From an uncultured Opitutia bacterium (GTDB taxonomy: Bacteria; Verrucomicrobiota; Verrucomicrobiia; Opitutales; Opitutaceae): a stretch of DNA of 64,000 nt. The first letter of the stretch is position 1. Each line of letters opens with the position of its first letter. The notes beneath the pieces were generated by a model that was not told the origin of the DNA, made no database searches, and saw only the letters and a program-made list of their open reading frames with translations. Made by a program: the position numbers and the translations under genes. This document shows positions 82-16,536 of the stretch, one piece after another. The stretch is taken from NCBI GenBank assembly GCA_903862955.1, contig CAIPAH010000024.1:1-64000 (forward strand), written 5' to 3'.

Positions 82-1590
82 TCAGGCCGCGCCGGCCACC
101 ACGGCGGACAGCTCCGCCAGGTGACGCTGGGCAATCTTGCGACCCTCGGCCTGGCCGAGTCGGCCGGCGAGCTGCTCCGCGATGCCCAAAAGATAACGCG
201 CCCGGCCCGGATCCAGCGGCGCCAAACGCGGCGCGAGCGCCAGCAGCGCCTCGAGAATGACCGGAGGATTCTGGCTCGACTCCACGGCCTTCACCCCCGC
301 CAGCAGCTGCTTGGCCGCAGCGGCGTTCTGGCCCAGCTCCAGCAGCGCGTTGGCTGCCTCCAGCCGGGATTTCCACGCCAGCGTCAACTGGACCTGCAGT
401 GCGGCGTTGTGGCGAATGGTCTGGCAGCGTTGCTCCAGCTCGGCCGCCTGCTGGCGCAAATGGCCCACCTCAACCTGCAAGGCGCGGACATCGGACTGCT
501 CGAACTGCGGCTGACCCGGATAGAGATCCGCCAGCACAAAGCGCTTCTCCGCCGGCGCGCGCAGCGGCTCCGCCGTCGGCACCATGCGCTCGGGCAATAC
601 CAGCGGCCGGCGATCCCGCCGTGCCTGTTGGCCACACTGCACCATCTGCAACGCGAGTTGCTGCAGCCGCGGCGTCGCCGGCGTCGTGCACTCCAGCGCG
701 TCGTGCAACATCGTGTCCTGATAAAGCAGCTTTGGCGCCGGTGGACTCGCCAGTTCGGCCAGTGTGGACGCGAGGTGCGCCGCCGCGGTGATGCGCCAGG
801 CCGGCGGCACATAATGCGGCGTGTTGCAGTAATCGAGCACCGCCACCGGCAGCCCGAGCAGCATCGCTTCCAACATCGTCGTGGAGGGCGTCGTGATCAC
901 GGCATCCACCTGCTGTAGCACTTCCAAGAGGTCACGGCCCGTGAGCACGGATACGACTTTGTCCACGCCGATCTCGCGATCGAGTCCCTTGGTCAGCCGC
1001 CAGACCGGCTCGATCCGCGCACCATTCGCTGACGGGCGCCGGTCCAGAAACATTTTCAAGTCCACCAGGGACTGCTTCACCAGTGCGTGCTGTTCTGGGG
1101 TGAAATACGGCGTGAGCGCCGTCATGATCAGCACGCGAAACGGCTCACTGGGACTGCGGGTGCGCCGCGTGCGGCCGGCATAGGCGTCAAAGCGCGGCGA
1201 GCCCGTCACTTCACACCGGCTGCCGTTGTGCCACGACTCGAGGATCCGCGCCTGCGAGCGACCCAGGCAGGCGATCTTGTGGCCGAGCACGGGCTGGAAG
1301 AGCGACCCGGCCGGCAGCTGCGGATGCTCCCACGTGTTGCGATATTCCAAAATGCCGTCAGCCAGCACGAGCGTCGGGATGCCGCGCTCCACCGCGCGAC
1401 GCAGCAGGGTCACGCGGGGCTCATGGTAGCAATCGGCCGTCACGATCAGGCCGGTCTCGGGGGAAAATTCATGGTGCGTCGGCGCGTAGGCCAGTCCCTC
1501 CACCGGGTGGTCAATCGTGGCCAGCCAGCTGCGGAAGAGCGGGTGGTCCGGGTTGTCCGCGAGAACGATGATCGGATGGAGGGAGTTCAT
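82..1590 (-). CDS. GT-B-like glycosyl/glycerophosphotransferase-like protein
   Basis: A 502-residue protein with no signal peptide. Its N-terminal two-thirds look like a GT-B fold of the CDP-glycerol glycerophosphotransferase or UDP-sugar epimerase type: alternating hydrophobic strands and a nucleotide-sugar-like segment near residues 229-250 (VDAVITTPSTTMLEAMLLG). Residues about 370-440 are a charged helical, probably coiled-coil stretch, and the tail resembles TPR helices. The ATG at 1590 overlaps the stop of the upstream OGT/GT4 gene as ATGA, so the two are probably translationally coupled. The open frame extends further upstream but runs inside that neighbour. A role in building or transferring a surface or flagellin glycan is inferred from context only, and the exact substrate cannot be read from the sequence. 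Confidence 0.7.
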   Translation of the reverse strand: MNSLHPIIVLADNPDHPLFRSWLATIDHPVEGLAYAPTHHEFSPETGLIVTADCYHEPRVTLLRRAVERGIPTLVLADGILEYRNTWEHPQLPAGSLFQPVLGHKIACLGRSQARILESWHNGSRCEVTGSPRFDAYAGRTRRTRSPSEPFRVLIMTALTPYFTPEQHALVKQSLVDLKMFLDRRPSANGARIEPVWRLTKGLDREIGVDKVVSVLTGRDLLEVLQQVDAVITTPSTTMLEAMLLGLPVAVLDYCNTPHYVPPAWRITAAAHLASTLAELASPPAPKLLYQDTMLHDALECTTPATPRLQQLALQMVQCGQQARRDRRPLVLPERMVPTAEPLRAPAEKRFVLADLYPGQPQFEQSDVRALQVEVGHLRQQAAELEQRCQTIRHNAALQVQLTLAWKSRLEAANALLELGQNAAAAKQLLAGVKAVESSQNPPVILEALLALAPRLAPLDPGRARYLLGIAEQLAGRLGQAEGRKIAQRHLAELSAVVAGAA

Positions 1591-5195: not shown

Positions 5196-5223
5196 TCATC
5201 GGCGCGGTCCCCGGCGGACTTTA
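5196..5223 (-). promoter_or_regulatory. Putative sigma-28 (FliA) promoter P1
   Basis: On the minus strand TAAAGTCC (5223-5216), a 12-bp spacer and GCCGATGA (5203-5196) match the FliA consensus TAAAGTTT-N11-GCCGATAA, apart from one extra spacer base. The promoter would give an unusually long leader of about 165 nt before the ATG at 5021. Apart from this site I see no convincing gene in the 5022-5236 gap. Confidence 0.5.
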
Positions 5224-5236
5224 GCCCAAAAGCGAC

Positions 5237-6076
5237 TCAACCCACCACATGACGCAGCGCCTCGAACGACGCGCGCGCCCGCGCAGTGGCGGCCTGCAAT
5301 TCGCCTTCGCTGATGCCTGCCCCGGCGAGCTTGGCCGAGCTCAGTTCCCAATAGCCCGTTTCGCCCGGCAGCCCATGGCCGGCGCGTTCCGTTTCACCCG
5401 CGGCCAGGTTGAGCAACTGGGCGAGCGGGGTGGCCGTTTCGTCGATGAGATAGTGATCCCGGATCGCGGCGATCATCGCCTCGGGAAAGTGCCATTCACC
5501 CAAAATGATCGCCGCCGCCATGCCGTTGTGCAGGCCGGCGACCTGCACTTCGCGCTCGGCCAACGGGGGCGATGCCTGATCCAGGCCCGCGCTAGCGGCT
5601 TCGCCACGCAGCATCCGGTCCAGCGCGATCTTGCCCGTCGAACGGAGCAACCCGGCAGTGTAGGCGAGGCGCGGATCGACGCCCGCCGGTTCGGCGAGCG
5701 TCTCCATCATGAGCGCGGTCAGCAGGGAATTCTCGCGCAGTTGCGCGCCCGACACGCCGTAGAGAGCCAAGCGTTGATCCGAAATCTGCGCCACGGCGGC
5801 GAAGCCGGTCAGGCGGTAGACTTCCTTGAACCCCACGCGCGCCAGCGCCTCGACGAGGGACGCGGCCGGCGTGGCCTGGTTGTAAAACGAACTGTTGGCG
5901 ACCCGGATGATCCGCGTCGTGAGCCCGGCGTCGCGGCGCAGCAGCTCGGTGATTTCGTTCAGGCCCGAATTCAGATCCAGCAACAACTCACCCAGCTGCG
6001 CGAGAATCTGCGGCGCCGCCGGCATCACCTTGACGACGTTCAACAGCATTTCGCGGGTTACCGGGGTGGCGATCAT
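5237..6076 (-). CDS. HDOD domain signalling protein (1 of 3)
   Basis: A 279-residue soluble protein. Nearly its whole length (about 10-210) is an HDOD domain, the degenerate HD-family fold found in bacterial signalling. It opens with the typical LPAAP-like segment (here MPAAPQILAQLGELL) and has the LLRRDAGLTTRIIRVANSS helix pair and the VEALARVGFKEVYRL segment. The catalytic HD pair of HD-GYP enzymes is absent: where HDIGK is expected the sequence reads RSTGK. It is therefore probably a regulatory or scaffold protein, not a phosphodiesterase. It lies 46 bp after an OGT gene and has its own sigma-28-like promoter. Two paralogues occur at 10140 and 15481. Confidence 0.9.
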   Translation of the reverse strand: MIATPVTREMLLNVVKVMPAAPQILAQLGELLLDLNSGLNEITELLRRDAGLTTRIIRVANSSFYNQATPAASLVEALARVGFKEVYRLTGFAAVAQISDQRLALYGVSGAQLRENSLLTALMMETLAEPAGVDPRLAYTAGLLRSTGKIALDRMLRGEAASAGLDQASPPLAEREVQVAGLHNGMAAAIILGEWHFPEAMIAAIRDHYLIDETATPLAQLLNLAAGETERAGHGLPGETGYWELSSAKLAGAGISEGELQAATARARASFEALRHVVG

Positions 6077-6094
6077 GGAGGGTGGGCTGGGAGG

Positions 6095-6121
6095 TTATCG
6101 GCGCGAAATCGCCCAAATTCA
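6095..6121 (-). promoter_or_regulatory. Putative sigma-28 (FliA) promoter P2
   Basis: On the minus strand TGAATTTG (6121-6114), an 11-bp spacer and a perfect GCCGATAA (6102-6095) lie 18 bp upstream of the HDOD start codon at 6076. The -35 half overlaps the junction with the preceding gene. The expected start point leaves a leader of only about 10-12 nt. Confidence 0.65.
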
Positions 6122-6122
6122 G

Positions 6123-8120
6123 TCAAATCGCCGCTTCGGTCGCAGGTAACGCCTGCCGCGCACACCACGCGGACCAACAGACTCGGACGGCGTCGCCGAA
6201 GCGCTGGCCTTGTCCGGCGTGGTCCATCAGCGGTGAGGCGCGCATCGCGTCCCGCAGCCCGGCTCGTTCCCGCGCCAGCCGCGGCCGGTCCTGCGCCAGC
6301 TCCGCCGCGATGCGCACGTAATCCTGCCAGTCGCGGCCAATCCATTCCTGCCGCCCGATCGCGTTCAGGAGGCTTGCCCCCACCCTGGCCACGTGCCGGT
6401 CACCGGGCAGTGTCACCACCGGACAACCCATCCACAGCGCCTCGCAGGTGGTGGTGGTGCCGTGATACGGAAACGTGTCGAGGGCGACATCGACGCGCCC
6501 GTAGAGCGCCAGGTGCGCGGCAAGGCCCGAGGTGCGGCCGAGCAGCTCCACGCGCAATGGGTCGAGCCCGCACGCGACGAAGCGCGCCTGCAGGCTGGCG
6601 GCACGGGCCGGGTCCGCGAGTCCGAGGCCCTTGAGTAGTAGGCGGGAACCCGGCACTGTCGCCAGCAAACGCGACCAGGCCTTGAGTGTAGTGTCGTTCA
6701 CCTTGGAGAAATTGTTGAAACAACCGAACGTCACCGCTGCTCCCGCGAAGCTGGGCGGCTCGGCCACCGCAGGCGCCTCGGCCGGCGGAGCGTAGCTCCA
6801 GGCGGTCGGTGCAAAACGCACGAGCTGCTCCGTGTGGAACGCATCGGCGTCACCCGTCGGGTCCGTGATCCCGTCTACAAAGCGGTAGTCCATTGCCCGC
6901 AAGCCGGTCGTGTTGGGGTAACCCAGATAGCTCAGCTGAACCGGCGCCAGCCGGCGCGCAAACAGCGGCAGGCGGTTGAGCCCGGTATGCCCGGCAAGGT
7001 CGACGAGCACGTCGGGCGCATCCGCCCGGATCGCCGCCTCGACCGCCGCGTGGGACTGGCCCGTGAAATGCCGCCACTGCGCCGCCCGGGCCTGCAGCCG
7101 CCGCGACATCCCGTCCACCTGCGGATGATCGTGATACAGGAAGATTTCGAAGCGCGCGGGGTCGAGGTGCGCAAGCAGCGGTTCCAGGAAATAGGCCACC
7201 GAATGCGCCCGCAGGTCGGGCGAGAGGAAGGCGAGACGCAGCCGGCGCTCCTCGTCGGGCGGGTTGGTCAGCGGCGCGGACGGCAGTTGCGCGGCCACGG
7301 TCCCGTAGGCGGTGTGGTCGGCAAACAGGTCCTCGCGGCTCATTTCGTCGAGGTAATGTCGCGCGAGCAGCCGGCCACTGTGCGCCTCGAGGTTGCGCGG
7401 ATTGCGCTCGAGGGCGGCCGTGTAATCGGCAATCGCCTCGGCGACGCGGCCCTGTTCCTGCCGCACGAGCGCCCGTCCCGTCAGCGCCAGAGCGTGGCCC
7501 GGCTCGACCGCGAGCACGCGGTCAAAATACGGCAGCGCTTCCGCCGCAGCGCCCGCCTGGGCGAGGGCGACGCCGAGGTTGGCGCAGCCGGAAAGGTTAC
7601 CCGGCTGCAATTCCACCGCGCGGCGAAAGTGCGGCACCGCCGCGGCAAATCCCGCGACCTCGCTGATCAGCGCGCCGAGGCGATCATGGGCTTCGCCATA
7701 GTCGGGCTTCAGTGCGATCGCTTGCGCATAGGCCACCTGGGCTTCCTGCGGGTGATTGAGCGCGCGCAGTGCGGCCCCGAGGTGGCACCACGCCTCGGCG
7801 AGCCCCGGCTCGCGCTCCACGGCCGTGCGCAGGTGTTTCTCCGCCAGGCCCGCTTCTCCCGAAGCAAGGCAGACCAGACCCAGGCGCATCGCGCACAGCC
7901 CTGAGCGGGGATTCAGCTCGAGCGCGCGCCGCAACAGCGCCCCGGCTTCCGGCAGTCGACCCTGCTGGTAGGCGAGCAGGCCGGACAAATGGAAGGCATC
8001 GAAATTTCCCGGCACCCTGGCGCGCACGCGCGCATAGAATTTTTCCGCGTCGGCGAGACGCCCTCCGCGGTGGTGACCCACGGCAGTCTGCAACAGCCCC
8101 TGGAATTTATCCGCGCTCAT
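6123..8120 (-). CDS. TPR O-GlcNAc-transferase (SPINDLY/GT41) family protein
   Basis: A 665-residue cytoplasmic glycosyltransferase. Residues about 1-285 are TPR repeats, with periodic A-Y-x-A-I-A-L-x-P-type motifs. Residues about 300-660 are the GT41 catalytic domain with the family hallmarks RLAFLSPDLRAHSVAYFLEP, DVLVDLAGHTGLNRLPLFARR and LSYLGYPNTTG. Also present are the conserved lysine region NFSKVNDTTLKAWSRLL, DTFPYHGTTTTCEALWMG and RVGASLLNAIG. The family transfers GlcNAc or another sugar from a nucleotide donor to Ser/Thr. The gene starts 3 bp after the stop of a close paralogue, so the pair probably arose by tandem duplication and is co-transcribed. Flagellin or another surface protein is a plausible target (inference). 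Confidence 0.93.
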   Translation of the reverse strand: MSADKFQGLLQTAVGHHRGGRLADAEKFYARVRARVPGNFDAFHLSGLLAYQQGRLPEAGALLRRALELNPRSGLCAMRLGLVCLASGEAGLAEKHLRTAVEREPGLAEAWCHLGAALRALNHPQEAQVAYAQAIALKPDYGEAHDRLGALISEVAGFAAAVPHFRRAVELQPGNLSGCANLGVALAQAGAAAEALPYFDRVLAVEPGHALALTGRALVRQEQGRVAEAIADYTAALERNPRNLEAHSGRLLARHYLDEMSREDLFADHTAYGTVAAQLPSAPLTNPPDEERRLRLAFLSPDLRAHSVAYFLEPLLAHLDPARFEIFLYHDHPQVDGMSRRLQARAAQWRHFTGQSHAAVEAAIRADAPDVLVDLAGHTGLNRLPLFARRLAPVQLSYLGYPNTTGLRAMDYRFVDGITDPTGDADAFHTEQLVRFAPTAWSYAPPAEAPAVAEPPSFAGAAVTFGCFNNFSKVNDTTLKAWSRLLATVPGSRLLLKGLGLADPARAASLQARFVACGLDPLRVELLGRTSGLAAHLALYGRVDVALDTFPYHGTTTTCEALWMGCPVVTLPGDRHVARVGASLLNAIGRQEWIGRDWQDYVRIAAELAQDRPRLARERAGLRDAMRASPLMDHAGQGQRFGDAVRVCWSAWCARQALPATEAAI

Positions 8121-8123
8121 CGA

Positions 8124-10004
8124 TCAGGTTGCCTGCCCTGCCCGCCCGCTTCGCAGCCAGCATTCGCGCACCGCGGCGCCGAACCGCGCCGCCTGGCCCG
8201 CATGGTCCATCAGCGCCGACGCCTGCAGCTCGCCGCGCAACGCGCGGCTCACGGTCTCCAGCCGCGCAGGTTCGGCGACGAGTCCCGCCGCAATCCCAAC
8301 ATACTCGTCCCAGTTTTCAGCGATCCACTCTCGATGCCCCACCGCGGACAACAAACTCCCACCCACGCGCGCCGCATGGCGGTCGCCCAGCTGGGTCACC
8401 ACCGGCACGCCCATCCAGAGCGCCTCACAGGTGGTGGTCGTGCCGTGATACGGAAACGTGTCCAACGCGACGTCGATACCGTGATACAACGCGAGGTGAC
8501 TGGTGACGTCCGCCGTGCGTTCCATCAATTCGACGCGAGTCAGGTCCAGCCCGGCCTTGGCCAGCCGGTCGCGGACTTGCTGGGCCACGGCGGATTCGCC
8601 CAGCCCGCCGGCCTTCAGTCGCAGCCGCGATCCCGGCACCTTCGCCAGCAAGCGGCTCCACGCGCCCAGCGCAGCGTCGGTGAGCTTCGCGAGATTATTG
8701 AAGCAGCCGAAGGTGACGGGCGCTCCACCGGCACTCGGCCGTGACGCCGGCGCGGGCGCCGCGTCCGGGGGGCGATAGGACCAGGCGGTGGACGCAAACC
8801 GCACGAGTTTCTCCGTGTGCCAGGCATCCGCCGTTCCGATCGGATCGGTGAAGTCGTCCACGAAGCGATAATCCATCGCGGTGAGTCCCGTGGTGTTCGG
8901 ATAGCCGAGATAGCTGATTTGCACCGGCGCCAGCCGGCGGGCGAAGAGCGGCAGTCGGTTCAGTCCCGTGTGCCCGGCGAGATCCACCAGCACGTCGGGC
9001 GCGTCGGCGCGGATGGTTTCCTCGACCGCGGCGGCGGGCTGGCCGACGAAATTCCGCCACACTGCGGCGCGGGCGCGCAGCCGCTCGCTCATCCCGTCGG
9101 TGACGAAATGATCGTGATACAAAATCACTTCGAACTGCGCCGGCGGCAGGTGCGCGAGCAGCGGCTCAAGGAAATACGCGACGGAATGCTCCCGCAGATC
9201 AGGGGAAAGAAACGCCAGCTTCAGCCTCCGTTCCAGCGCCGCCGGCATTGCCGTGATCCGACTCGCCGGCGGTGCTGCAAACCGCCGCCCGAACTCGAGG
9301 TGCTCGGCGTAGAGCTGCTCGCGACTCCAATCATCGAGATAATTGAGCGCCATCAGCCGGTAGCTTCGCGCCGCGTGATTCTCCGGCTCGGCGCGAAGAG
9401 CGGCGTCGAACGCCACGAGCGCCTCCGGCAGGCGATGGGCCTGCTGCAGCGCCAGCGCGCGGCCGAACTGTGCCTTGGCAAAACCGGGATCCGCGGCCAA
9501 GGCCTTGTCCTGGCATTCCAGCGCCTCCCCGGCGCGTCCGGCAAACAGCAGCGCCTGGCCCAAATTATACCAGCTGTTGGCGCGGCCGGGCTTCAACTCC
9601 ACCGCGCAGCGGTGCGCCTTGATCGCCTCCTCGAGCTGCCCGCGTGCCTTCAGCACGAAGCCGAGCGTGTCCCAGACTTCGGCGTCGCCGGGCGTGAGCC
9701 CGAGCGCCGTCCGCAGCGCCGGCTCGGCCTCGTCGTAGCGCGCCAGCTTGGCCAGCGCGAACCCGAGCCGCAGCCAGCCCGCCGCGCCGCGCGGCTGGAG
9801 TTTTGTGACGCGTCCCAGCCAGCCGACGGCGTCGGCGTAGAATTCCTGCTGCAGCGCCGTCAGCGCGGACAAGTTGAGCACGGAGGAGTCGCCGGGCGCC
9901 ACGGCGCGGGCCTGCGCGCAGAGCCGCGCCGCCCGCTCAGGCCGGCCGGCCCGCAGCTGGACGGCCGCCTCTTCCAAAAGACGCTGAATTTTTACGGGCT
10001 GCAC
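8124..10004 (-). CDS. TPR O-GlcNAc-transferase (SPINDLY/GT41) family protein, first gene of operon
   Basis: A 626-residue paralogue of the next gene. TPR repeats span about 1-240 and the GT41 domain about 255-620, with RLKLAFLSPDLREHSVAYFLEP, DVLVDLAGHTGLNRLP, ISYLGYPNTTG, NNLAKLTDAALGAWSRLL and DTFPYHGTTTTCEALWMG. The frame stays open to 10877, but that part is antisense to the divergent HDOD gene. I place the start at the GTG at 10004 (VQPVKIQRLLEEA), because a good sigma-28-like promoter sits just upstream at 10025-10051 and a purine-rich AGAAGGGA lies about 11 bp before the GTG. No ATG is available between the promoter and the TPR region. The start is the uncertain part; the function call is firm. 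Confidence 0.9.
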   Translation of the reverse strand: MQPVKIQRLLEEAAVQLRAGRPERAARLCAQARAVAPGDSSVLNLSALTALQQEFYADAVGWLGRVTKLQPRGAAGWLRLGFALAKLARYDEAEPALRTALGLTPGDAEVWDTLGFVLKARGQLEEAIKAHRCAVELKPGRANSWYNLGQALLFAGRAGEALECQDKALAADPGFAKAQFGRALALQQAHRLPEALVAFDAALRAEPENHAARSYRLMALNYLDDWSREQLYAEHLEFGRRFAAPPASRITAMPAALERRLKLAFLSPDLREHSVAYFLEPLLAHLPPAQFEVILYHDHFVTDGMSERLRARAAVWRNFVGQPAAAVEETIRADAPDVLVDLAGHTGLNRLPLFARRLAPVQISYLGYPNTTGLTAMDYRFVDDFTDPIGTADAWHTEKLVRFASTAWSYRPPDAAPAPASRPSAGGAPVTFGCFNNLAKLTDAALGAWSRLLAKVPGSRLRLKAGGLGESAVAQQVRDRLAKAGLDLTRVELMERTADVTSHLALYHGIDVALDTFPYHGTTTTCEALWMGVPVVTQLGDRHAARVGGSLLSAVGHREWIAENWDEYVGIAAGLVAEPARLETVSRALRGELQASALMDHAGQAARFGAAVRECWLRSGRAGQAT

Positions 10005-10024
10005 ACGATGATGGGTCCCTTCTG

Positions 10025-10051
10025 TTGTCGGCGCACCCGTCCGCCGCTTTA
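10025..10051 (-). promoter_or_regulatory. Putative sigma-28 (FliA) promoter P3
   Basis: On the minus strand TAAAGCGG (10051-10044), an 11-bp spacer and GCCGACAA (10032-10025) form a near-consensus FliA promoter for the glycosyltransferase operon. The start codon is 20 bp downstream. It is divergent with P4, and the two -35 boxes are 12 bp apart. Confidence 0.65.
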
Positions 10052-10063
10052 GTGGATTCGTCC

Positions 10064-10090
10064 TCAAGCGCACCCAAACCGCGCCGATTA
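10064..10090 (+). promoter_or_regulatory. Putative sigma-28 (FliA) promoter P4
   Basis: TCAAGCGC (10064-10071), an 11-bp spacer and GCCGATTA (10083-10090) precede the HDOD gene at 10140 by about 50 bp. The -10 box matches at 7 of 8 positions and the -35 box is weaker. It is paired back-to-back with P3. Confidence 0.5.
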
Positions 10091-10139
10091 GGCAGGCATC
10101 CCGGACCGAGCCAACCTCCGCCGGGATTCCACTTTTCGC

Positions 10140-11051
10140 ATGCCTGTCATTCATCCCTCCGCGACCTACTCCGATGCCGAAATCATGCGGCGCATCGAGG
10201 CGTGTCCCAAGCTCGCCTCGCTCCAAAGCATCAACCGGGCCCTCAGCGACCTGGTCCGTTCCGAAAGCAGCGTCACCTCGCAGATCGCCGAGATCATCCG
10301 GCGCGACCCGTCCCTCTCCGCGCGGCTCCTGCGCCTCGTCAATTCCGTCTACTTCGGCCTCTCCGCGCGCGTGAACAACATCGAGGAAGCCGTGTTCTTC
10401 CTCGGCTTGCGCCAGATCCGCGAACTCTCGCTCGCCACGCCGGTGCTCGAGGACCTCGCGCAATTCCAGTCCAGCTCGTCCCTCGTGCTGCCGTGGAAGG
10501 AACTCTGGACGCACAGCATCGGCACCGCCGTGCTCACCCGCGAGATCCTCGCGTCCACCGCGCTGCACATCGACGACGACACCGATTATCTCGTCGGCCT
10601 GCTCCACAACATCGGCAAGGTCGTGATGGCCTATGCGTTCCCCGAGGAACTGACCATCCTGATGGCGACCCCAGCCGCGACGCCCGCGGACATCTGCCAG
10701 CTCGAGCGCAACCTGATCGGTTGGGACCACGCGCACATCGGCGCGCACTACCTCGAGCGGCACCACCTGGCCGAGGAAATCACGTTGGCCGTTCGGCACC
10801 ACAACGACCCCGACCGCGCGCCCCGCCACCGGTTGTTTGCCTCCTGTGTCCAGGTTGCCGACTACCTCGTGCGTCACCGCGGCATCAGTGGCGGCTTCGA
10901 GCAGGTCGCCCCGATCGCCGAGGGCGCGTGGACGGAACTCGACGGCTGGAAAATCCTCTTCGGCGCCGATGGCCCCGAGACCATGCTGGCGCGCGCCTCC
11001 ATCGCGAACTCGCTCCAGCGGCTGCCCAGCGTGCTGCAGGGACTGCTTTGA
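10140..11051 (+). CDS. HDOD domain signalling protein (2 of 3)
   Basis: A 303-residue soluble protein with an HDOD domain over residues about 15-225. Features are CPKLASLQSINRALSDL, IIRRDPSLSARLLRLVNSVYF and VNNIEEAVFFLGLRQIREL. It keeps more HD-like histidines than the other two copies: the LLHNIGKVVMAY helix, WDHAHIGAHYLERHHL and VRHHNDP. The canonical HD aspartate is replaced by Asn (HNIGK), so phosphodiesterase activity is doubtful but less clearly excluded. It is divergent from the glycosyltransferase operon and is followed after 51 bp by a PAS histidine kinase on the same strand. A TTGAGCG/CGCTCAA inverted repeat spans its stop codon and the gap (11048-11071). Confidence 0.9.
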   Translation: MPVIHPSATYSDAEIMRRIEACPKLASLQSINRALSDLVRSESSVTSQIAEIIRRDPSLSARLLRLVNSVYFGLSARVNNIEEAVFFLGLRQIRELSLATPVLEDLAQFQSSSSLVLPWKELWTHSIGTAVLTREILASTALHIDDDTDYLVGLLHNIGKVVMAYAFPEELTILMATPAATPADICQLERNLIGWDHAHIGAHYLERHHLAEEITLAVRHHNDPDRAPRHRLFASCVQVADYLVRHRGISGGFEQVAPIAEGAWTELDGWKILFGADGPETMLARASIANSLQRLPSVLQGLL

Positions 11052-11067
11052 GCGGGCCTTTTTTCGC

Positions 11068-11094
11068 TCAAGTTCCCCGAATTCAGGACGATGC
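11068..11094 (+). promoter_or_regulatory. Possible sigma-28 (FliA) promoter P5
   Basis: TCAAGTTC (11068-11075), an 11-bp spacer and GACGATGC (11087-11094). The -35 box matches at 6 of 8 positions but the -10 box at only 5 of 8, so this is the weakest of the seven sites. The ATG at 11091 lies inside the -10 box. If the promoter is real, the gene must start at the ATG at 11103. Confidence 0.35.
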
Positions 11095-11102
11095 CTTCGC
11101 CC

Positions 11103-13022
11103 ATGTCCGCTCGAGAGAGTGATTCAGGCACCAGCATTGTCGCATCGACGCCCACCAAAAGCTGGCTGGGAACCTGGGAAACCAGCACCGACCCGGCCTA
11201 TTGCCGCGACCTGGAGGGCTGCGTGCTCGCGGCCAATCCCGTCTTCGTCCGCAAATTCGGCCGTCCGCTCGAAACCCTGCTGGGCAGTCCCCTCGCGGCG
11301 CTCCTGCACAGCGACGACGCCGCCAGCGTGTCCGCCACGCACGCCGCCCTCAGCCGCCCGCCGCACCGCGCGACGAGCGAACATCGCTGGCTGACGCCCG
11401 GCGGCACCCGCTGGTTTGCCTGGGATGAAATCGCCTTGCGTGACACCACCGGGCAGATCGTCGCCGTGCGCGCGTCCGGCCGCGACATCACCCGCCAGCG
11501 TCTCGCCGAAGAACAGTTTCACCGCCTCTCCAGCGCCATCGAACAATCCCCCGTGGCCATCGTGATCACCGACCTCGACGGCTGGCCGCAATACGTGAAC
11601 CCGAAGTTCACCGCCGTGAGCGGCCGCACGCTGGAGGACCTGCTCGACCAGAAGATCGAGGTCCTGCGCGACGGGCACCCCGACGCGGCGTCCTACGAAA
11701 AATTCTGGCAGACCCTGCGCGCCGGCGGCGAATGGCGCGGCGAGTTCGCAACGCGGCGCGGCGAAGGCGGCACGGTCTGGGAGTCGGTCAAGGTTTCCTG
11801 CCTGCGCAATCCCCACGGCGAAATCACCAACTTCCTCTGCCTCCGTGAAGACGTGACCGAGCGCAAGAAACTGGAGCACGACCTGCGTCAGGCCCACAAG
11901 ATGGAGAGCCTCGGCACGCTCGCCGGCGGCATCGCGCACGATTTCAACAACCTGCTCGCCATCATCAACGGCTATGCCGAGTTCTGCCTGCAGGGCGGCG
12001 CCGAGCCCGCCGTGCTGCAAAAAAGTCTCCGCGAAATCCGCACGGCCGCCCAGCGCGCCGGCGGCTTGGTGAAGCAGATTCTGACCTTCAGCCGGAAGAC
12101 GGAGGTGCGCTTCGCCCCGATGGATCTCAACCAGCTCGTGCAGGATCTGGTGAAGCTGCTGGCCGAAACATTTCCCCGCACGGTCACGTTCAACCTCGAG
12201 TTGCAACCGCGGCTGCCGGCGTTGCTCGCCGACCAGAACCAGCTCCAGCAGATCATCCTCAATCTCTGCGTGAACGCCCGCGATGCCATGCCGACGGGCG
12301 GCGTCATCACCCTCGCCACCAGCGTCCACGCCGGCGCCCCGCCCATCCGCAACGCCGCTCCCGATCGCAGTTACGCCTGCCTCCGCGTCGGCGACACCGG
12401 CACCGGCATGAGCCCGGAGGTCCGCGCGCGGCTGTTCGAGCCGTTCTTCACCACCAAGCAGGTCAACCAAGGCACTGGTCTCGGCCTCGCCGTGGTGCAC
12501 GGCGTCGTCGAGTCCCATCAGGGCGGCATCGAGGTCGAGAGCACCGTCGGCACCGGCAGCGTGTTCAGCATCTACCTGCCGCTCGCCAACACCGCCGTGC
12601 CCGCGGCCATCGCGTCGAACAGCGATTTCCCCAGCGGCGGCGAATCGCTGCTCATCGTCGATGACGAGGACTCCCTGCGGGAACTCCTCACCGAGGCCTT
12701 CCACCGCAAGGGCTACAAGATCTCCACCGCCTCCAACGGTCATGAGGCCATTGACCTCATCAGCGACGAATCGCGTCACTACGACCTGGTTCTCCTCGAT
12801 CTCAACCTCCCCAACGCCAGCGGGTTGCAGGTCATGAAGGTCATCCGGCTCTGCCGTCCGGGCACCTGCGTGCTCGTGGTCAGCGGCCACATCACGCCCG
12901 AAATCCGGGCGGATTTTCAGCAGATCGGCCAGCGGGACTTCATGATGAAGCCCTACACGCTGGACGAAATGGGTCGCCGCATCCGCACCCTGCTCGACGC
13001 CCGCGCCGCCACGCGGCCCTGA
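11103..13022 (+). CDS. PAS-PAS hybrid histidine kinase with C-terminal receiver
   Basis: A 639-residue soluble sensor kinase. Two PAS domains (about 30-135 and 140-255) are followed by a HisKA dimerisation domain with the phospho-accepting His in GGIAHDFNNLLA, an HATPase_c domain (N box NLCVNARDAM; GDTGTGMS; TGLGLAVVHG), and a receiver domain from about 515. The receiver has acidic residues in LLIVDDED and a phospho-accepting Asp in LVLLDLNLP. The GIAHDFNN type of H-box is common in NtrB-like and aerotaxis-like kinases. It has no transmembrane segment, so it senses a cytoplasmic signal. An upstream ATG at 11091 is possible, but it lies inside the putative promoter P5. It probably forms a signalling module with the adjacent HDOD protein. 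Confidence 0.9.
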   Translation: MSARESDSGTSIVASTPTKSWLGTWETSTDPAYCRDLEGCVLAANPVFVRKFGRPLETLLGSPLAALLHSDDAASVSATHAALSRPPHRATSEHRWLTPGGTRWFAWDEIALRDTTGQIVAVRASGRDITRQRLAEEQFHRLSSAIEQSPVAIVITDLDGWPQYVNPKFTAVSGRTLEDLLDQKIEVLRDGHPDAASYEKFWQTLRAGGEWRGEFATRRGEGGTVWESVKVSCLRNPHGEITNFLCLREDVTERKKLEHDLRQAHKMESLGTLAGGIAHDFNNLLAIINGYAEFCLQGGAEPAVLQKSLREIRTAAQRAGGLVKQILTFSRKTEVRFAPMDLNQLVQDLVKLLAETFPRTVTFNLELQPRLPALLADQNQLQQIILNLCVNARDAMPTGGVITLATSVHAGAPPIRNAAPDRSYACLRVGDTGTGMSPEVRARLFEPFFTTKQVNQGTGLGLAVVHGVVESHQGGIEVESTVGTGSVFSIYLPLANTAVPAAIASNSDFPSGGESLLIVDDEDSLRELLTEAFHRKGYKISTASNGHEAIDLISDESRHYDLVLLDLNLPNASGLQVMKVIRLCRPGTCVLVVSGHITPEIRADFQQIGQRDFMMKPYTLDEMGRRIRTLLDARAATRP

Positions 13023-13125
13023 GACCGCCTTCGGAGGAATTTTTCCTTCAGAAGTGCGGCGTCCGGTCCGATGAAAAGACCGGGCAGAATCACGACCGTC
13101 CATCACATGGAATGTCTTTCACTCA

Positions 13126-13635
13126 ATGAATCACCGCGAACCATCGCAGGTGCCGACTGGCGTTCGCCGCATCGGCGTGTGCATGGCGTTGCTTTTTTTC
13201 TTCGCCCCGGCGGGGAGGATGCTCGCCATGGGACACCCGCGTCCTGTCGCCAGCCGTTCCCAGGGCAAGTCGCCGGTGCCCGCCGACGGCTACCTGCCCT
13301 TGCTGGGCGCTCCCGCCCTCCGCTTTGTCGAGGATCTGCCACCGGTCCCGCCGGCGCCGCGCCTCGAAACCACCACGCAACTGAAGGCACCCGCGGTCAT
13401 GACGGGGCCCGACATCGTCGGGGGCAAAGCCGCGACATCGAACAGCGCCCGGCCCATCACCCGCACGGAAGCCCGCGTCGAGCCCATCGTCGCGGAGAAA
13501 ACCGCCCCGCTTTCCATCCTGCCGGATGAAAACCGTCCCCAGGTGAAACCCGAGGACTTCCTGCCCTACTTCCAAATTCCCAACGCCGCGCCGCTCCCCA
13601 AGAGCACCGCCACCTACACCGAGACCACGAAATGA
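13126..13635 (+). CDS. Exported Pro-rich protein of unknown function
   Basis: A 169-residue protein that I do not recognise. A basic N-terminus (VRRIGV) followed by the hydrophobic run CMALLFFFAPAG, with an AMG cleavage-like site near residue 36, suggests Sec export. The mature part is rich in Pro, Ala and Thr and looks unstructured, with no domain motif. Its last codons overlap the ATG of the next gene (ATGA at 13632), so it is the first gene of a tight three-gene operon with a TPR protein and a small helical protein. A periplasmic or envelope role is inferred. Confidence 0.7.
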   Translation: MNHREPSQVPTGVRRIGVCMALLFFFAPAGRMLAMGHPRPVASRSQGKSPVPADGYLPLLGAPALRFVEDLPPVPPAPRLETTTQLKAPAVMTGPDIVGGKAATSNSARPITRTEARVEPIVAEKTAPLSILPDENRPQVKPEDFLPYFQIPNAAPLPKSTATYTETTK

Positions 13636-14867
13636 TCCGACTTCCCCTTCCGTCGCGCCGCCTGTGCCAACTCGCCGCGGGCTTCCTGCTCGTCGGTGGA
13701 GCCTCGGCCAGCCGCGCCGGGACGGACGTGACCAAACCGGCAGCGACGCATGTTCGCGCCACGGACGAAATCCACGGCCTGCTCAACCTGGGCAACAGCA
13801 TGACGGACCGGCGCGATTTCGAGTCCGCCGAGATCGCGTTCCGGCAAGTGCTGGATGTGCCCGGCGGGCCCGGACCCGAGGAAACCAAGTCGGCGCTGCT
13901 CGGGCTGGCGCGGATGTATCGCAAGCAGGGCGCCTCCGTGAAGGCCGTGGCGATTTACGAAAAATTCCTCGCCGATTACCCGGGTGACCCGCGCACTCCC
14001 GAAGTCCTGCTCGAGTCGGGCCGCACCATGCGCGCGATGGGCTCCCATCGCCTCGCCCTGGCGCGGTTCTACAGCGTGATCAACTCCACGCTGAAGCTGC
14101 CCGACAAGGGCTTCGACCATTACCAGCAACTCGCCAAAACCGCGCAGTTTGAGATCGCCGAGACGCACTTCCAGTCCGGCGAATACGCGGAGGCCGCCAA
14201 GTATTTCTCGCGCCTGCGCCTGCTGGACCTCGCTCCCGCCGATCGGGCCCGTGCGCATTTCAAGGCCGCCTATGCGCTCAACCTGCAGGGCGACAACGAA
14301 GGGGCGGTCAACATGCTGAACTCGTTCCTCGAGCAGTGGCCCGACGACGAAAACGTCCCGGAGGCGCGCTACCTGCTCGCCACGACGCTGCACACGCTCG
14401 GACGCACCCAGGACGCCCTCGTCGCAACGCTGGACCTCCTGCGCACGCAACAAGCCCACCCCGGCATCGATGCCAAGCGCTGGGCCTACTGGCAGCGACG
14501 CACCGGCAACCAGTTGGCGAACAATTTCTTCGAGCAGGGCGACATCCTCAACGCCCAGTTGATCTACACCAGTCTCGCGGCGCTCACCGATGATCCGACC
14601 TGGCGCTTGCCCGTGCTTTACCAGATCGGCCTGTGCCACGAGCGGCTCGGCAGCATGGACCGCGCCCGGCTGGCGTATCAGGACATCATCGAGGCGGGGA
14701 AAAAGAATCCCACCGCGGAAACCGCCGAACTCAGCCGCATGGCGGAATGGCGGCTGGGGCACCTGGATTGGAATGATTCGACCCGCCATGAGGTGGCCGC
14801 CATTTTCGAAACCACCACCGGCCGGGCGCCCCGGGCTCCCGCCAAACCCACGACCCCGGCTCCCTGA
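13632..14867 (+). CDS. Exported TPR-repeat protein
   Basis: A 411-residue protein with an N-terminal signal peptide (SRRLCQLAAGFLLVGGASASRAG). From residue 45 to 385 it consists of TPR or TPR-like helical pairs: DFESAEIAFRQVLD, SVKAVAIYEKFLADYPGD, EYAEAAKYFSRLR, DNEGAVNMLNSFLEQWPDD and SMDRARLAYQDIIEAG. The C-terminus is Ala/Pro rich. It resembles periplasmic TPR scaffolds such as YbgF-like or outer-membrane assembly partners. It overlaps its neighbours by 4 bp upstream and 1 bp downstream (TGATG), so translation is coupled across the operon. Its partner proteins are unknown. Confidence 0.85.
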   Translation: MIRLPLPSRRLCQLAAGFLLVGGASASRAGTDVTKPAATHVRATDEIHGLLNLGNSMTDRRDFESAEIAFRQVLDVPGGPGPEETKSALLGLARMYRKQGASVKAVAIYEKFLADYPGDPRTPEVLLESGRTMRAMGSHRLALARFYSVINSTLKLPDKGFDHYQQLAKTAQFEIAETHFQSGEYAEAAKYFSRLRLLDLAPADRARAHFKAAYALNLQGDNEGAVNMLNSFLEQWPDDENVPEARYLLATTLHTLGRTQDALVATLDLLRTQQAHPGIDAKRWAYWQRRTGNQLANNFFEQGDILNAQLIYTSLAALTDDPTWRLPVLYQIGLCHERLGSMDRARLAYQDIIEAGKKNPTAETAELSRMAEWRLGHLDWNDSTRHEVAAIFETTTGRAPRAPAKPTTPAP

Positions 14868-15247
14868 TGAATCCGCTTCCGCCCCTCCAGCAGCACCAGC
14901 AGCTCTGCGACGACATCTATCAATGTGTCCTCGCTGAGAACCGCTTCCTCCGCCAGCACCAGCAGGTGCCGGACGCGGCCATGCTGGCCCGCAAGCGGAT
15001 CCTGCTCGGGCAGCTCGACGATTCCCTCACCGCGTTGCGCGCCGTGCCGGCCGCATCGGCCCGTGAGCCCTCGCTGCAAGCGGGCCTGGAAAAGAACCGG
15101 GCGCGCATCCTGCAGATTCTCCAGATGGAAAAGGAAAACGAACAGCTGCTGCTGCGCTGCAGCCTGGCCAGCACGACCGGCGGCGCGGCCGTCGCGCCGG
15201 CGCCGGCGAGTTCGCTTCTCCAAAAGATCTACGCCCGCTGCAAGTAA
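14867..15247 (+). CDS. Small helical protein, FlgN-like
   Basis: A 126-residue protein predicted to be almost entirely helical with heptad character (LCDDIYQCVLAENRFLRQ, ARKRILLGQLDDSLTALRAV, KNRARILQILQMEKENEQLLLR). Length, the N-terminal Leu/Glu-rich helices and a C-terminal amphipathic segment are like FlgN-type flagellar export chaperones. There is no diagnostic motif, so this is a suggestion and not an identification. It is the last gene of a coupled three-gene operon. A FlgN role would fit the cluster of FliA-like promoters around it. Confidence 0.55.
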   Translation: MNPLPPLQQHQQLCDDIYQCVLAENRFLRQHQQVPDAAMLARKRILLGQLDDSLTALRAVPAASAREPSLQAGLEKNRARILQILQMEKENEQLLLRCSLASTTGGAAVAPAPASSLLQKIYARCK

Positions 15248-15278
15248 CGCGGCGCGCTGGTATTGGTACGGTTTGAAT

Positions 15279-15337
15279 GTAGGAGCGGGTTTATCCCGCG
15301 AATGGAGCTAAGGATCGCGGCGTAAAGCCGCTCTCAC
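15279..15337 (+). repeat. REP/BIME-like double hairpin
   Basis: Two small hairpins, GCGGG-TTTAT-CCCGC (15285-15299) and GCGGC-GTAAA-GCCGC (15317-15331), are framed by GTAGGAGCGGG at the left and CTCTCAC at the right. The left unit closely resembles the classic REP unit of Pseudomonas. TTTGAATGT (15272-15280) and ACATTCGAAA (15349-15358) form imperfect flanking arms. It sits between convergent transcription units, with no gene in 15248-15480. Confidence 0.65.
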
Positions 15338-15480
15338 AGTGGGGATCAACATTCGAAATGCACCACCACCAGTCCGTTTGGGTCTGATCCGCAGGCTGGC
15401 TCCCTAGCCGGGCATTGGCGTCGCATTGCGTGGCACTGGCGACGCAGCCGACTGAAATGCCGCGCCGAGGCGGCCGGGCC

Positions 15481-16410
15481 TCAGACCCGATCAAAATTAG
15501 CGGCGGGAAAATGCATCCGGCCGATCTGGTCTTCCGTGTCGACGCTGAGCAGCGAACTCACCGCGGCGAGCTGCTGTTCCACCTCGAAGCTCATCTCGTA
15601 GAGGCTCGCCGGGCTGAGCCGCAGGGGCTGCAGCTGCGCCTCGTCCGGCAAGGCCGGGCGTTGCCGCGCATCGCTGCAAGCCGAGCTGCGCAGCCATTTC
15701 GCCGCGAGGAGGAGGCTCGCCATCGGGGTCTGCCCGCCCGACGCAAGCGGGGTGTATTGCCACCGCACGGGCTCGGACATGGCCAGGGGGAAATTCCAAT
15801 GCCGCAGCAGCGTCGCCCCGACCTCCGCCTGCGTGAAGCCCAGCGCCGCGCGTTCCGCCTCCGTCGCCTCGCGCGCCCAGCCGGTGGACTTGAGCTTGAG
15901 CCCCGACGCATGGCGCAGCGCCCATTCGTCGATCGCCACCATGCCCACGCGGTGCAGCAGGCCGATCGTGTAGGCGATGTCGGGATCCTGGCCGGTCCGG
16001 TGCGCGAGCACCTCCGCGGAAATCGCGCAGGCCACCGAGCTGCGCCAGAGGGCATCGGACTCGAGGCTGTAAACTTCCAACGGACGCACCAGCACCTGCG
16101 ACGCGACCGCATAGGACACGAGCTGGTAGACCTGGTCGTAACCCACGCGCTGCACGGCCTCGTCGACGGTCAGGCAACGCACGGCGTGGGAGTTGAAATA
16201 CGCGCTGTTCGCCATCTGCAGCACCCGGGCGGCGATGCCGGGGTCGAGGCGGATCAGCGTCACGATCTCGGCCATGCCGGAGTTGGCATCGGAGAGCAGC
16301 TTCTTGAGGCGCGGGAGCACCTTCGGCGCCGACGGGAGGTGCTTCACCTCACGAATGATATCATCAGGGGAAAACGCAGTCGGGGGGACAATCGTCAGTT
16401 CGGCGATCAT
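15481..16410 (-). CDS. HDOD domain signalling protein (3 of 3)
   Basis: A 309-residue soluble protein. Its HDOD domain covers about 15-235, with VKHLPSAPKVLPRLKKLL, LIRLDPGIAARVLQMANSAYF and VDEAVQRVGYDQVYQLVSYA. As in the copy at 5237, the catalytic HD dyad is missing (LLHRVGMVAIDEW). I chose the ATG at 16408-16410, because a sigma-28-like promoter with a perfect -10 box lies 18 bp upstream. The frame stays open far upstream, but that part is antisense to the divergent hybrid kinase. The shared promoter type and position suggest that it acts with that kinase. Confidence 0.9.
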   Translation of the reverse strand: MIAELTIVPPTAFSPDDIIREVKHLPSAPKVLPRLKKLLSDANSGMAEIVTLIRLDPGIAARVLQMANSAYFNSHAVRCLTVDEAVQRVGYDQVYQLVSYAVASQVLVRPLEVYSLESDALWRSSVACAISAEVLAHRTGQDPDIAYTIGLLHRVGMVAIDEWALRHASGLKLKSTGWAREATEAERAALGFTQAEVGATLLRHWNFPLAMSEPVRWQYTPLASGGQTPMASLLLAAKWLRSSACSDARQRPALPDEAQLQPLRLSPASLYEMSFEVEQQLAAVSSLLSVDTEDQIGRMHFPAANFDRV

Positions 16411-16427
16411 GGTGGGGGATGCCCCTT

Positions 16428-16454
16428 TTATCGGCCCAAACGCGACGGACTTTT
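16428..16454 (-). promoter_or_regulatory. Putative sigma-28 (FliA) promoter P6
   Basis: On the minus strand AAAAGTCC (16454-16447), an 11-bp spacer and a perfect GCCGATAA (16435-16428) lie 18 bp before the HDOD start. This is the same geometry as P2 in front of the paralogous HDOD gene at 6076. Confidence 0.68.
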
Positions 16455-16499
16455 GAATTTTTGGTGAACTTTTAACGGCCGCGTCGGGCATATCTCGCC

Positions 16500-16526
16500 T
16501 AAAGTGCTGGCTGCGCGGGCCGATAT
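16500..16526 (+). promoter_or_regulatory. Putative sigma-28 (FliA) promoter P7
   Basis: TAAAGTGC (16500-16507), an 11-bp spacer and GCCGATAT (16519-16526) form a near-perfect FliA site. Only 10 bp separate the -10 box from the ATG at 16537, so the transcript would be almost leaderless. It is divergent with P6. Confidence 0.65.
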
Positions 16527-16536
16527 ATCCCCGGTC

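What the first reader, a model, noticed from the sequence alone, without database searches (positions are those of the whole stretch)
5196..16526. Seven sigma-28 (FliA)-type promoters define a possible regulon of HDOD proteins, kinases and OGT glycosyltransferases
Seven sites on both strands match TAAAGTTT-N11-GCCGATAA closely: P1 5196-5223, P2 6095-6121, P3 10025-10051, P4 10064-10090, P5 11068-11094, P6 16428-16454, P7 16500-16526. P2 and P6 have perfect -10 boxes, P1 has a 12-bp spacer and P5 is weak. Every signalling or glycosylation unit between 1.6 and 19.6 kb except the 13126 operon has one. FliA normally serves late flagellar genes, so this points to a previously unlinked set (three HDOD proteins, two hybrid kinases, GT41 enzymes) under flagellar control. 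The motif matches are direct; the function is inferred.
Basis: partly seen in the sequence, partly recalled or inferred. Interest (0 to 1): 0.82.

Follow-up and report, generated by a model that had tools for sequence, protein, structure and literature searches.

The report
Sigma-28 promoters beside flagellin genes
A block of signalling and sugar-transfer genes next to the flagellin genes of an uncultured bacterium (family Opitutaceae) carries promoters for the flagellar sigma factor FliA, so these genes are probably switched on together with the flagellar filament, most likely to decorate flagellin and adjust motility.

Summary
A matrix trained on 11 flagellin, fliD and fliS-operon promoters (no window site) ranks P7, P6, P1, P3, P2, P4 as the window's six best sites, each correctly oriented upstream of a gene; 0 of 500 column-shuffled matrices put even four of their top six there. 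Genome-wide, the five one-mismatch matches are two sites in the flagellar cluster plus P3, P6, P7. P5 is weak here, but 16 of 51 orthologous kinases have a good site 5-12 nt before their start, against 2 of 483 other genes. The excepted 13126 operon has a very weak remnant, better kept in relatives.

FliA exists. The set is not unlinked: in G007 and G010 the block adjoins flagellin, fliD and fliS. Every GT41 match and three of five HDOD genes of the genome lie in it.

Best reading: a late-flagellar regulon combining SPINDLY-type flagellin glycosylation with HDOD/hybrid-kinase motility control. Regulation is strongly supported by sequence; functions are inferred. Components are known; the combination did not appear in my literature searches. 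The genome has no MCP or CheW match.

The parts
5196..5223 (-). P1, sigma-28-type promoter, 12-bp spacer, 175 nt before the GT41-GT4 gene
   Evidence: Best 12-bp-spacer match of the whole genome (only one-mismatch hit); matrix 22.3; 12-bp spacer kept in G010 (16.2, 174 nt) and G007 (14.5, 195 nt), but only 3 of 15 orthologs, window included, reach 13
6095..6121 (-). P2, promoter 19 nt before HDOD gene 5237-6076
   Evidence: Matrix 15.8; 12 of 19 orthologs reach 13; not in G007 (5.9)
10025..10051 (-). P3, promoter of the TPR-GT41 pair 8124-9977 and 6123-8120
   Evidence: One-mismatch genome hit; matrix 15.9; 7 of 28 orthologs reach 13; only 7.7 and 7.8 in G010 and G007
10064..10090 (+). P4, promoter 50 nt before HDOD gene 10140-11051
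   Evidence: Matrix 15.2; 41 of 62 orthologs reach 13 against 26 of 483 other genes
11068..11094 (+). P5, weak promoter 8 nt before the probable start (11103) of the hybrid kinase
   Evidence: Matrix 13.2, eighth in window; 16 of 51 orthologs have a site of 12 or more 5-12 nt before the start, 2 of 483 other genes; absent in G010 and G007
13047..13074 (+). P8, remnant promoter (TTCAGAAG-N12-TCCGATGA) before the 13126 operon
   Evidence: Matrix only 2.7, below the median of other genes, and the opposite strand there scores 13.0; in 33 loci the median is 9.3 against 1.6 on the opposite strand, 4 against 1 reach 13
16428..16454 (-). P6, promoter 18 nt before HDOD gene 15481-16410
   Evidence: One-mismatch genome hit; matrix 22.6; 14 of 20 orthologs reach 13; not in G007 (6.5)
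16500..16526 (+). P7, promoter 10-11 nt before the hybrid kinase gene 16537
   Evidence: One-mismatch genome hit; best site of the window, 23.0; 3 of 6 orthologs reach 13
82..1590 (-). putative glycosyltransferase
   Evidence: DUF6716 20.3 bits, below cut-off 27; stop codon about 330 bp from flagellin in the inferred contig join
1587..5021 (-). GT41-like plus GT4 fusion glycosyltransferase
   Evidence: Pfam
5237..6076 (-). HDOD protein
   Evidence: PF08668 110.5 bits
6123..8120 (-). TPR-GT41 glycosyltransferase
   Evidence: PF13844 135.9 bits
8124..9977 (-). TPR-GT41 glycosyltransferase, closest solved relative SPINDLY
10140..11051 (+). HDOD protein
   Evidence: PF08668 156 bits
11103..13022 (+). 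PAS hybrid histidine kinase
   Evidence: PAS, HisKA, HATPase_c, Response_reg; start codon from gene caller
13126..13635 (+). 169-aa protein of unknown family
   Evidence: no Pfam or NCBIfam match
13632..14867 (+). TPR protein
14867..15247 (+). 126-aa helical protein, possibly an export chaperone of FlgN type
   Evidence: no Pfam/NCBIfam match; model pLDDT 81.5; FlgN 2fup TM 0.67, probability 1.00 but E 0.16
15481..16410 (-). HDOD protein
   Evidence: PF08668 153.3 bits
16537..19575 (+). multi-PAS hybrid histidine kinase with two receiver domains

Best explanation
The sites are promoters for the genome's single FliA (sigma-28). They put a block that lies next to the flagellin genes into the late flagellar class: two SPINDLY-type TPR-GT41 enzymes, a GT41-GT4 fusion and a further glycosyltransferase most likely glycosylate flagellin in the cytosol before export, in the manner of FlmG; three HDOD proteins and two PAS hybrid kinases most likely feed environmental signals to flagellar output once the hook-basal body is complete. 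Shown by sequence: fliA, promoter motif, its place, its conservation, gene content and synteny. Inferred: binding by FliA, flagellin as the substrate, and the direction of the HDOD/kinase effect.
For: FliA over the family cut-off, the only such match in the genome. Same motif before fliD, flagellin and the fliS operon. Matrix without window sites ranks six of the seven as the window's top six, 0 of 500 shuffles reach four. Orthologs elsewhere keep the sites: HDOD 10140 41 of 62, HDOD 15481 14 of 20, HDOD 5237 12 of 19, against 26 of 483 other genes and 0 of 34 and 0 of 29 for two operon-internal genes. Among 38 genomes fliA and HDOD 10140 (over 190 bits) co-occur in 16, fliA alone 4, HDOD alone 1, neither 17 (p 3e-6); inside the genus 4 and 8 with no exception. 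The one HDOD genome without fliA, G012, scores 7.7 there, while 9 of 10 fliA-bearing family members score 12 or more. Block adjoins flagellin in G007 and G010. SPINDLY active-site residues kept in 8124-9977.
Against: No expression data. The training sites were themselves found with the E. coli-type consensus, so the matrix is independent of the window but not of that consensus. Pattern counts show no genome-wide excess. P3 is weak in G010 and G007, P2 and P6 are weak in G007, P5 is absent in both. G021, which has fliA, scores 5.4 at the HDOD gene, and G026, G036, G027 outside the family score 5.2, 1.0, -0.2; G033, G025, G035 gave no gene call. Loci are related and partly overlap with the G genomes, so p-values are descriptive. 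No donor-sugar pathway was sought.
Confidence: 0.85

Rival explanations
1. The seven sites are chance matches in a GC-rich genome, picked by eye.
For: 22 distinct places of the window have 11 matches to the consensus, among them P4 and P5; 24 of 37 genome hits with up to two mismatches are inside genes; reversed control has more hits.
Against: Top-six ranking with an outside matrix and all six upstream, 0 of 500 shuffles with four or more, conservation in relatives.
Confidence: 0.03
2. The motif is real but is read by another sigma factor or by an activator, and the flagellar link is only shared ancestry of the region.
For: Other sigma-70-family proteins match the FliA model weakly (115 and 105 bits). 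Block and flagellar genes are neighbours, so linkage alone could couple them.
Against: Motif equals the FliA consensus and stands before fliD, flagellin and fliS operon; one FliA only; the block without fliA (G012) lacks the motif, though this is a single genome.
Confidence: 0.08
3. The GT41/GT4 enzymes are late flagellar genes but act on something other than flagellin (hook-associated protein, cell-surface glycan or the signalling proteins).
For: SPINDLY and OGT modify intracellular regulatory proteins (PMC9715652, passages); no flagellin glycan is known here; two tandem enzymes and a fusion suggest several acceptors or steps.
Against: Flagellin genes are the immediate neighbours; GT41 SPINDLY-type enzymes sit in enterobacterial flagellin islands (PMC4875605, passages); FlmG binds flagellin by its TPR part (PMC7591256, passages).
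Confidence: 0.3

Closest known systems
FliA (sigma-28) class III flagellar regulon
   Same: Promoter consensus, FliA present, flagellin and fliD carry the motif
   Different: Adds HDOD proteins, PAS hybrid kinases and GT41 enzymes; no MCP or CheW match in the genome to serve as the usual chemotaxis part; several 12-bp spacers; kinase promoters end about 9 nt before the start codon
FlmG flagellin O-glycosyltransferase of Caulobacter (PMC7591256, passages)
   Same: N-terminal TPR part and C-terminal GT-B part, tied to flagellin
   Different: FlmG uses pseudaminic acid; here SPINDLY-like sequence, two tandem copies and a fusion, FliA-type promoter; donor unknown; FlmG was not compared by sequence
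Enterobacterial flagellin glycosylation islands with SPINDLY-type GT41 (PMC4875605, passages)
   Same: GT41 SPINDLY-type enzymes beside flagellin
   Different: There most GT41 enzymes also carry methyltransferase domains; no HDOD or kinase genes were mentioned in the passages I saw
HDOD motility regulators GsmR, Cj0248, SadB, PSPTO_4229 (PMC11004494, PMC6543031, PMC11813219, passages)
   Same: HDOD domain proteins that alter swimming
   Different: No FliA promoter is stated in the passages seen; here three HDOD genes share one regulon next to flagellin

Membership tests
FliA (sigma-28) regulon | fliA gene in the genome | tested here: met
   TIGR02479 232.1 bits over cut-off 189.6
FliA (sigma-28) regulon | consensus promoter shared with flagellin and other late genes | tested here: met
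   flagellin site itself only 12 of 16
FliA (sigma-28) regulon | promoters upstream and oriented to genes beyond chance | tested here: met
   for P1-P4, P6, P7; P5 and P8 inconclusive in this genome
FliA (sigma-28) regulon | conservation at orthologous genes | tested here: met
   partial for P1 and P3
FliA (sigma-28) regulon | transcription lost in a fliA mutant | not testable with these tools
   needs experiment
GT41 / SPINDLY-type transferase | TPR plus GT41 catalytic part with SPY active-site residues | tested here: met
   8124-9977: H495, S496, N661, K665, H728, Y744, T748 positions kept in the alignment (residue roles); 6123-8120: HS and PYxGTTTT motifs seen, others not checked; GT41 part of 1587-5021 lacks the HS motif
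Flagellin glycosyltransferase | modifies flagellin | not testable with these tools
   only adjacency and co-regulation
HDOD signalling protein | HDOD domain over cut-off | tested here: met
   110.5, 156 and 153.3 bits, cut-off 22.9
FlgM anti-sigma-28 (gene C3:4985-5269 before fliS) | FlgM family match | tested here: inconclusive
   no Pfam match at E up to 5, no PDB match for a 3-row profile; only position suggests it

The most novel reading that the evidence does not exclude
In this flagellate without any recognisable chemoreceptor or CheW/CheA, the FliA-driven HDOD and PAS hybrid-kinase block stands in for chemotaxis: FliA switches on, with the filament, a phospho-relay/HDOD circuit that tunes flagellar output, partly from leaderless messages that translate with no Shine-Dalgarno sequence, while SPINDLY-type enzymes mark flagellin.
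Probability: 0.17. Interest if true: 0.8.

Novelty: new variant of a known kind. Interest (0 to 1): 0.57.

Why it matters
HDOD proteins alter swimming in several bacteria by an unknown route; here three of them share promoters with flagellin, which makes the question of what they do to the flagellum directly testable. It also gives a promoter matrix and a regulon map for flagellates of the Opitutaceae, links SPINDLY-type GT41 enzymes to flagellin outside the Enterobacteriaceae, and points to a flagellated genome with no recognisable chemotaxis genes.

Tried and rejected
Raw genome-wide pattern counts as a test were rejected: TAAAG-N14-GCCGATAA up to 2 mismatches 37 against 81 for the reversed control; the 12-bp-spacer pattern up to 3 mismatches 83 against 139; AAG-N13..15-GCCGATNW 93 against 29. 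The last set was not sorted into coding and upstream, so I draw nothing from its excess. In one search the locus L050 could not be placed (cut by a contig end), and the first gene caller missed HDOD 15481-16410; one search repeats the sorting of the 37 hits with a better caller.

FlgM: the 94-aa gene before fliS looks placed like flgM, but no match was found, so I do not name it so; my scripts and notes use the label flgM for it. FliT is only a weak match below its cut-off.

Co-occurrence of the GT41 ortholog (over 500 bits) with fliA in 25 family members is weak: 7, 6, 1, 11, p 0.03. The idea that the block replaces chemotaxis is not backed by the wider set: 3 of 20 fliA genomes (G000, G025, G035) lack a CheW match, and the 4 fliA genomes without the HDOD ortholog over 190 bits all have one; MCPs were searched in the own genome only. 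In counting HDOD orthologs I dropped matches under 190 bits (G019, G023, G024 have weaker ones, all with fliA).

Other two-mismatch sites upstream of genes, at C6:14542, C13:109969 and C24:277252 (S30AE protein, weak glycosidase match, response regulator), were not followed further. Structure search of the 14867 protein gave no match at E 0.001 or better.

Full report
Where it is. The window is the first 64 kb of contig C24 (444,260 bp) of a 3.61-Mb, 31-contig genome rated 100% complete (41-style loci listing).

The sites. By matching to the consensus P1, P2, P6 and P7 (13 of 16) are the best of the window and P3 has 12, a score shared by one other place (3559, inside a gene); P4 and P5 share 11 with 20 other places. 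To avoid circularity I built a matrix from 11 sites before flagellin, fliD and the fliS operon in G000, G007, G010, G014, G016 and G017, with no site of this block. It ranks P7, P6, P1, P3, P2 and P4 first to sixth in the window; all six are intergenic, point to a gene and lie 11-175 nt before its start; P5 is eighth at noise level. Column-shuffled matrices never put more than 3 of 6 in such places (500 shuffles). The training sites had been found with the E. coli-type consensus, so the matrix is independent of the window but not of that consensus.

Whole genome. Allowing one mismatch to TAAAG-N14-GCCGATAA there are five sites: one before the fliS operon, one before a 148-aa gene beside it, and P3, P6, P7, all upstream of genes. 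With two mismatches there are 32 more: 6 upstream (fliD, P2, P4 and three others), 24 inside genes, 2 elsewhere. P1 is the only one-mismatch match of the 12-bp-spacer form. Raw counts do not exceed those of the reversed pattern, so the evidence is place and conservation, not number.

FliA and flagellar genes. One gene passes the FliA cut-off. Two flagellins, FliD and FliS were identified by Pfam at C3:250-5702, with the motif at 2216-2242 (flagellin), 2381-2407 (fliD) and 4914-4940 (fliS operon).

Not unlinked. In G007 the order is: kinase, HDOD, 13126-type operon, kinase, HDOD, two GT41, HDOD, GT41-GT4, GT, then both flagellins, fliD and the fliS operon; the GT-flagellin gap is 327 bp there, and the contig ends of the window and C3 leave 81 + 249 = 330 bp. 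So C24:1 and C3:1 almost certainly abut. G010 has the same block next to the flagellins, which there lie in the other orientation.

Conservation. In 62 loci of relatives plus the window, the best site within 250 nt before orthologs reaches 13 for HDOD 10140 in 41 of 62, HDOD 15481 in 14 of 20, HDOD 5237 in 12 of 19, kinase 11103 in 20 of 51, GT41 8124 in 7 of 28, kinase 16537 in 3 of 6, GT41-GT4 in 3 of 15; genes inside operons give 4 of 27 (6123), 0 of 34 (13632) and 0 of 29 (14867); other genes 26 of 483 (the window is one member of each set, loci are related, so these are descriptive). Some of the 26 may be true targets.

P5 and leaderless starts. Of 47 kinase orthologs directly behind the HDOD gene, 16 have a site scoring 12.4 or more; in 15 of these it ends 6-18 nt before the start, in one 69 nt; 2 more have weak sites at 8 and 15 nt; 29 have none over 6. 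Over all orthologs, 16 of 51 (11103) and 3 of 6 (16537) have a site of 12 or more ending 5-12 nt before the start, against 2 of 483 other genes. With a start of transcription about 7 nt behind the -10 box (recalled from E. coli) these messages would be nearly leaderless. P5 of this window is a weak member of that group.

P8. In 33 loci (window included) the stretch behind the kinase holds sites with median 9.3 against 1.6 on the opposite strand (4 against 1 reach 13; Wilcoxon p 0.0024), often TTCAG-...-N12-GCCGATAG. The window's own copy scores only 2.7, and the opposite strand there 13.0. So the operon probably belongs to the set in relatives; in this genome it is doubtful.

Phylogenetic pattern. 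fliA and HDOD 10140 (over 190 bits) among 38 genomes: both 16, fliA only 4, HDOD only 1, neither 17; within the genus 4 both, 8 neither. G012, the HDOD genome without fliA, scores 7.7 before the HDOD gene and -0.9, 7.4, 6.5 before its GT41 genes; fliA-bearing family members score 15.2, 15.7, 13.9, 13.3, 12.1, 14.9, 15.9, 18.5, 17.4 and, in G021, 5.4; three genomes outside the family score 5.2, 1.0 and -0.2, and three gave no gene call.

What the genes do. Every GT41 match of the genome (5 stretches, 3 genes) and 3 of its 5 HDOD genes are in the block; the other two HDOD genes score 9.3 and 1.7 upstream. The closest solved relative of 8124-9977 is plant SPINDLY (E 6e-106), and the residues reported as key in SPINDLY (H495, S496, N661, K665, H728, Y744, T748; PMC9715652, passages) are kept. 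FlmG is a TPR plus GT-B flagellin glycosyltransferase (PMC7591256, passages), and SPINDLY-type GT41 enzymes occur in enterobacterial flagellin islands (PMC4875605, passages). HDOD proteins change swimming in Xanthomonas, Campylobacter and Pseudomonas (PMC11004494, PMC6543031, PMC11813219, passages). The 14867 protein models as a helical bundle whose most credible structural match is FlgN (TM 0.67, E 0.16), a hint of an export chaperone only.

No chemotaxis genes found. The genome gives no MCP match at E 1e-6 and no CheW-domain match at E 1e-5. G010 has CheW, MCP, CheA and HDOD genes between the orthologs of C3:6768 and C3:8299, which in this genome are 104 bp apart.

Literature. Searches for HDOD with sigma-28 or FliA, GT41/SPINDLY with flagellin, FlmG, and Opitutaceae or Verrucomicrobia with flagellar terms listed no paper with this combination; several of these lists were cut to the best 8-25 rows, and most subscription papers are not held.

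Noticed in passing
whole genome G000; C3:8195-8299: A flagellate genome with FliA but no MCP (PF00015) or CheW (PF01584) match; same-genus G010 has a che cluster at the matching place.
   Followed up: partly
window:1 and C3:1: Two contig ends almost certainly abut between the glycosyltransferase 82-1590 and flagellin; the gap agrees with G007 within a few bases (330 against 327 bp).
   Followed up: yes
L038:6119-6565 (C3): 148-aa gene of unknown family beside the fliS operon with a one-mismatch sigma-28 site; orthologs with sites in G010.
   Followed up: partly
window:11068-11103 and 16500-16537: Kinase promoters whose -10 box ends about 9 nt before the start codon, conserved in relatives: likely leaderless messages.
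   Followed up: partly
window:14867-15247: Conserved 126-aa helical protein, weak structural likeness to FlgN, in an operon with a TPR protein.
   Followed up: partly
window:1587-5021: Fusion of a diverged GT41-like part and a GT4 part in one 1144-aa protein.
   Followed up: no
L038:250-2113: The flagellin pair lies inverted relative to fliD in this genome and G007 compared with G010.
   Followed up: no
L139:4606-5496 (G010 C14:264606-265496): A further HDOD gene directly behind cheA in G010.
   Followed up: no
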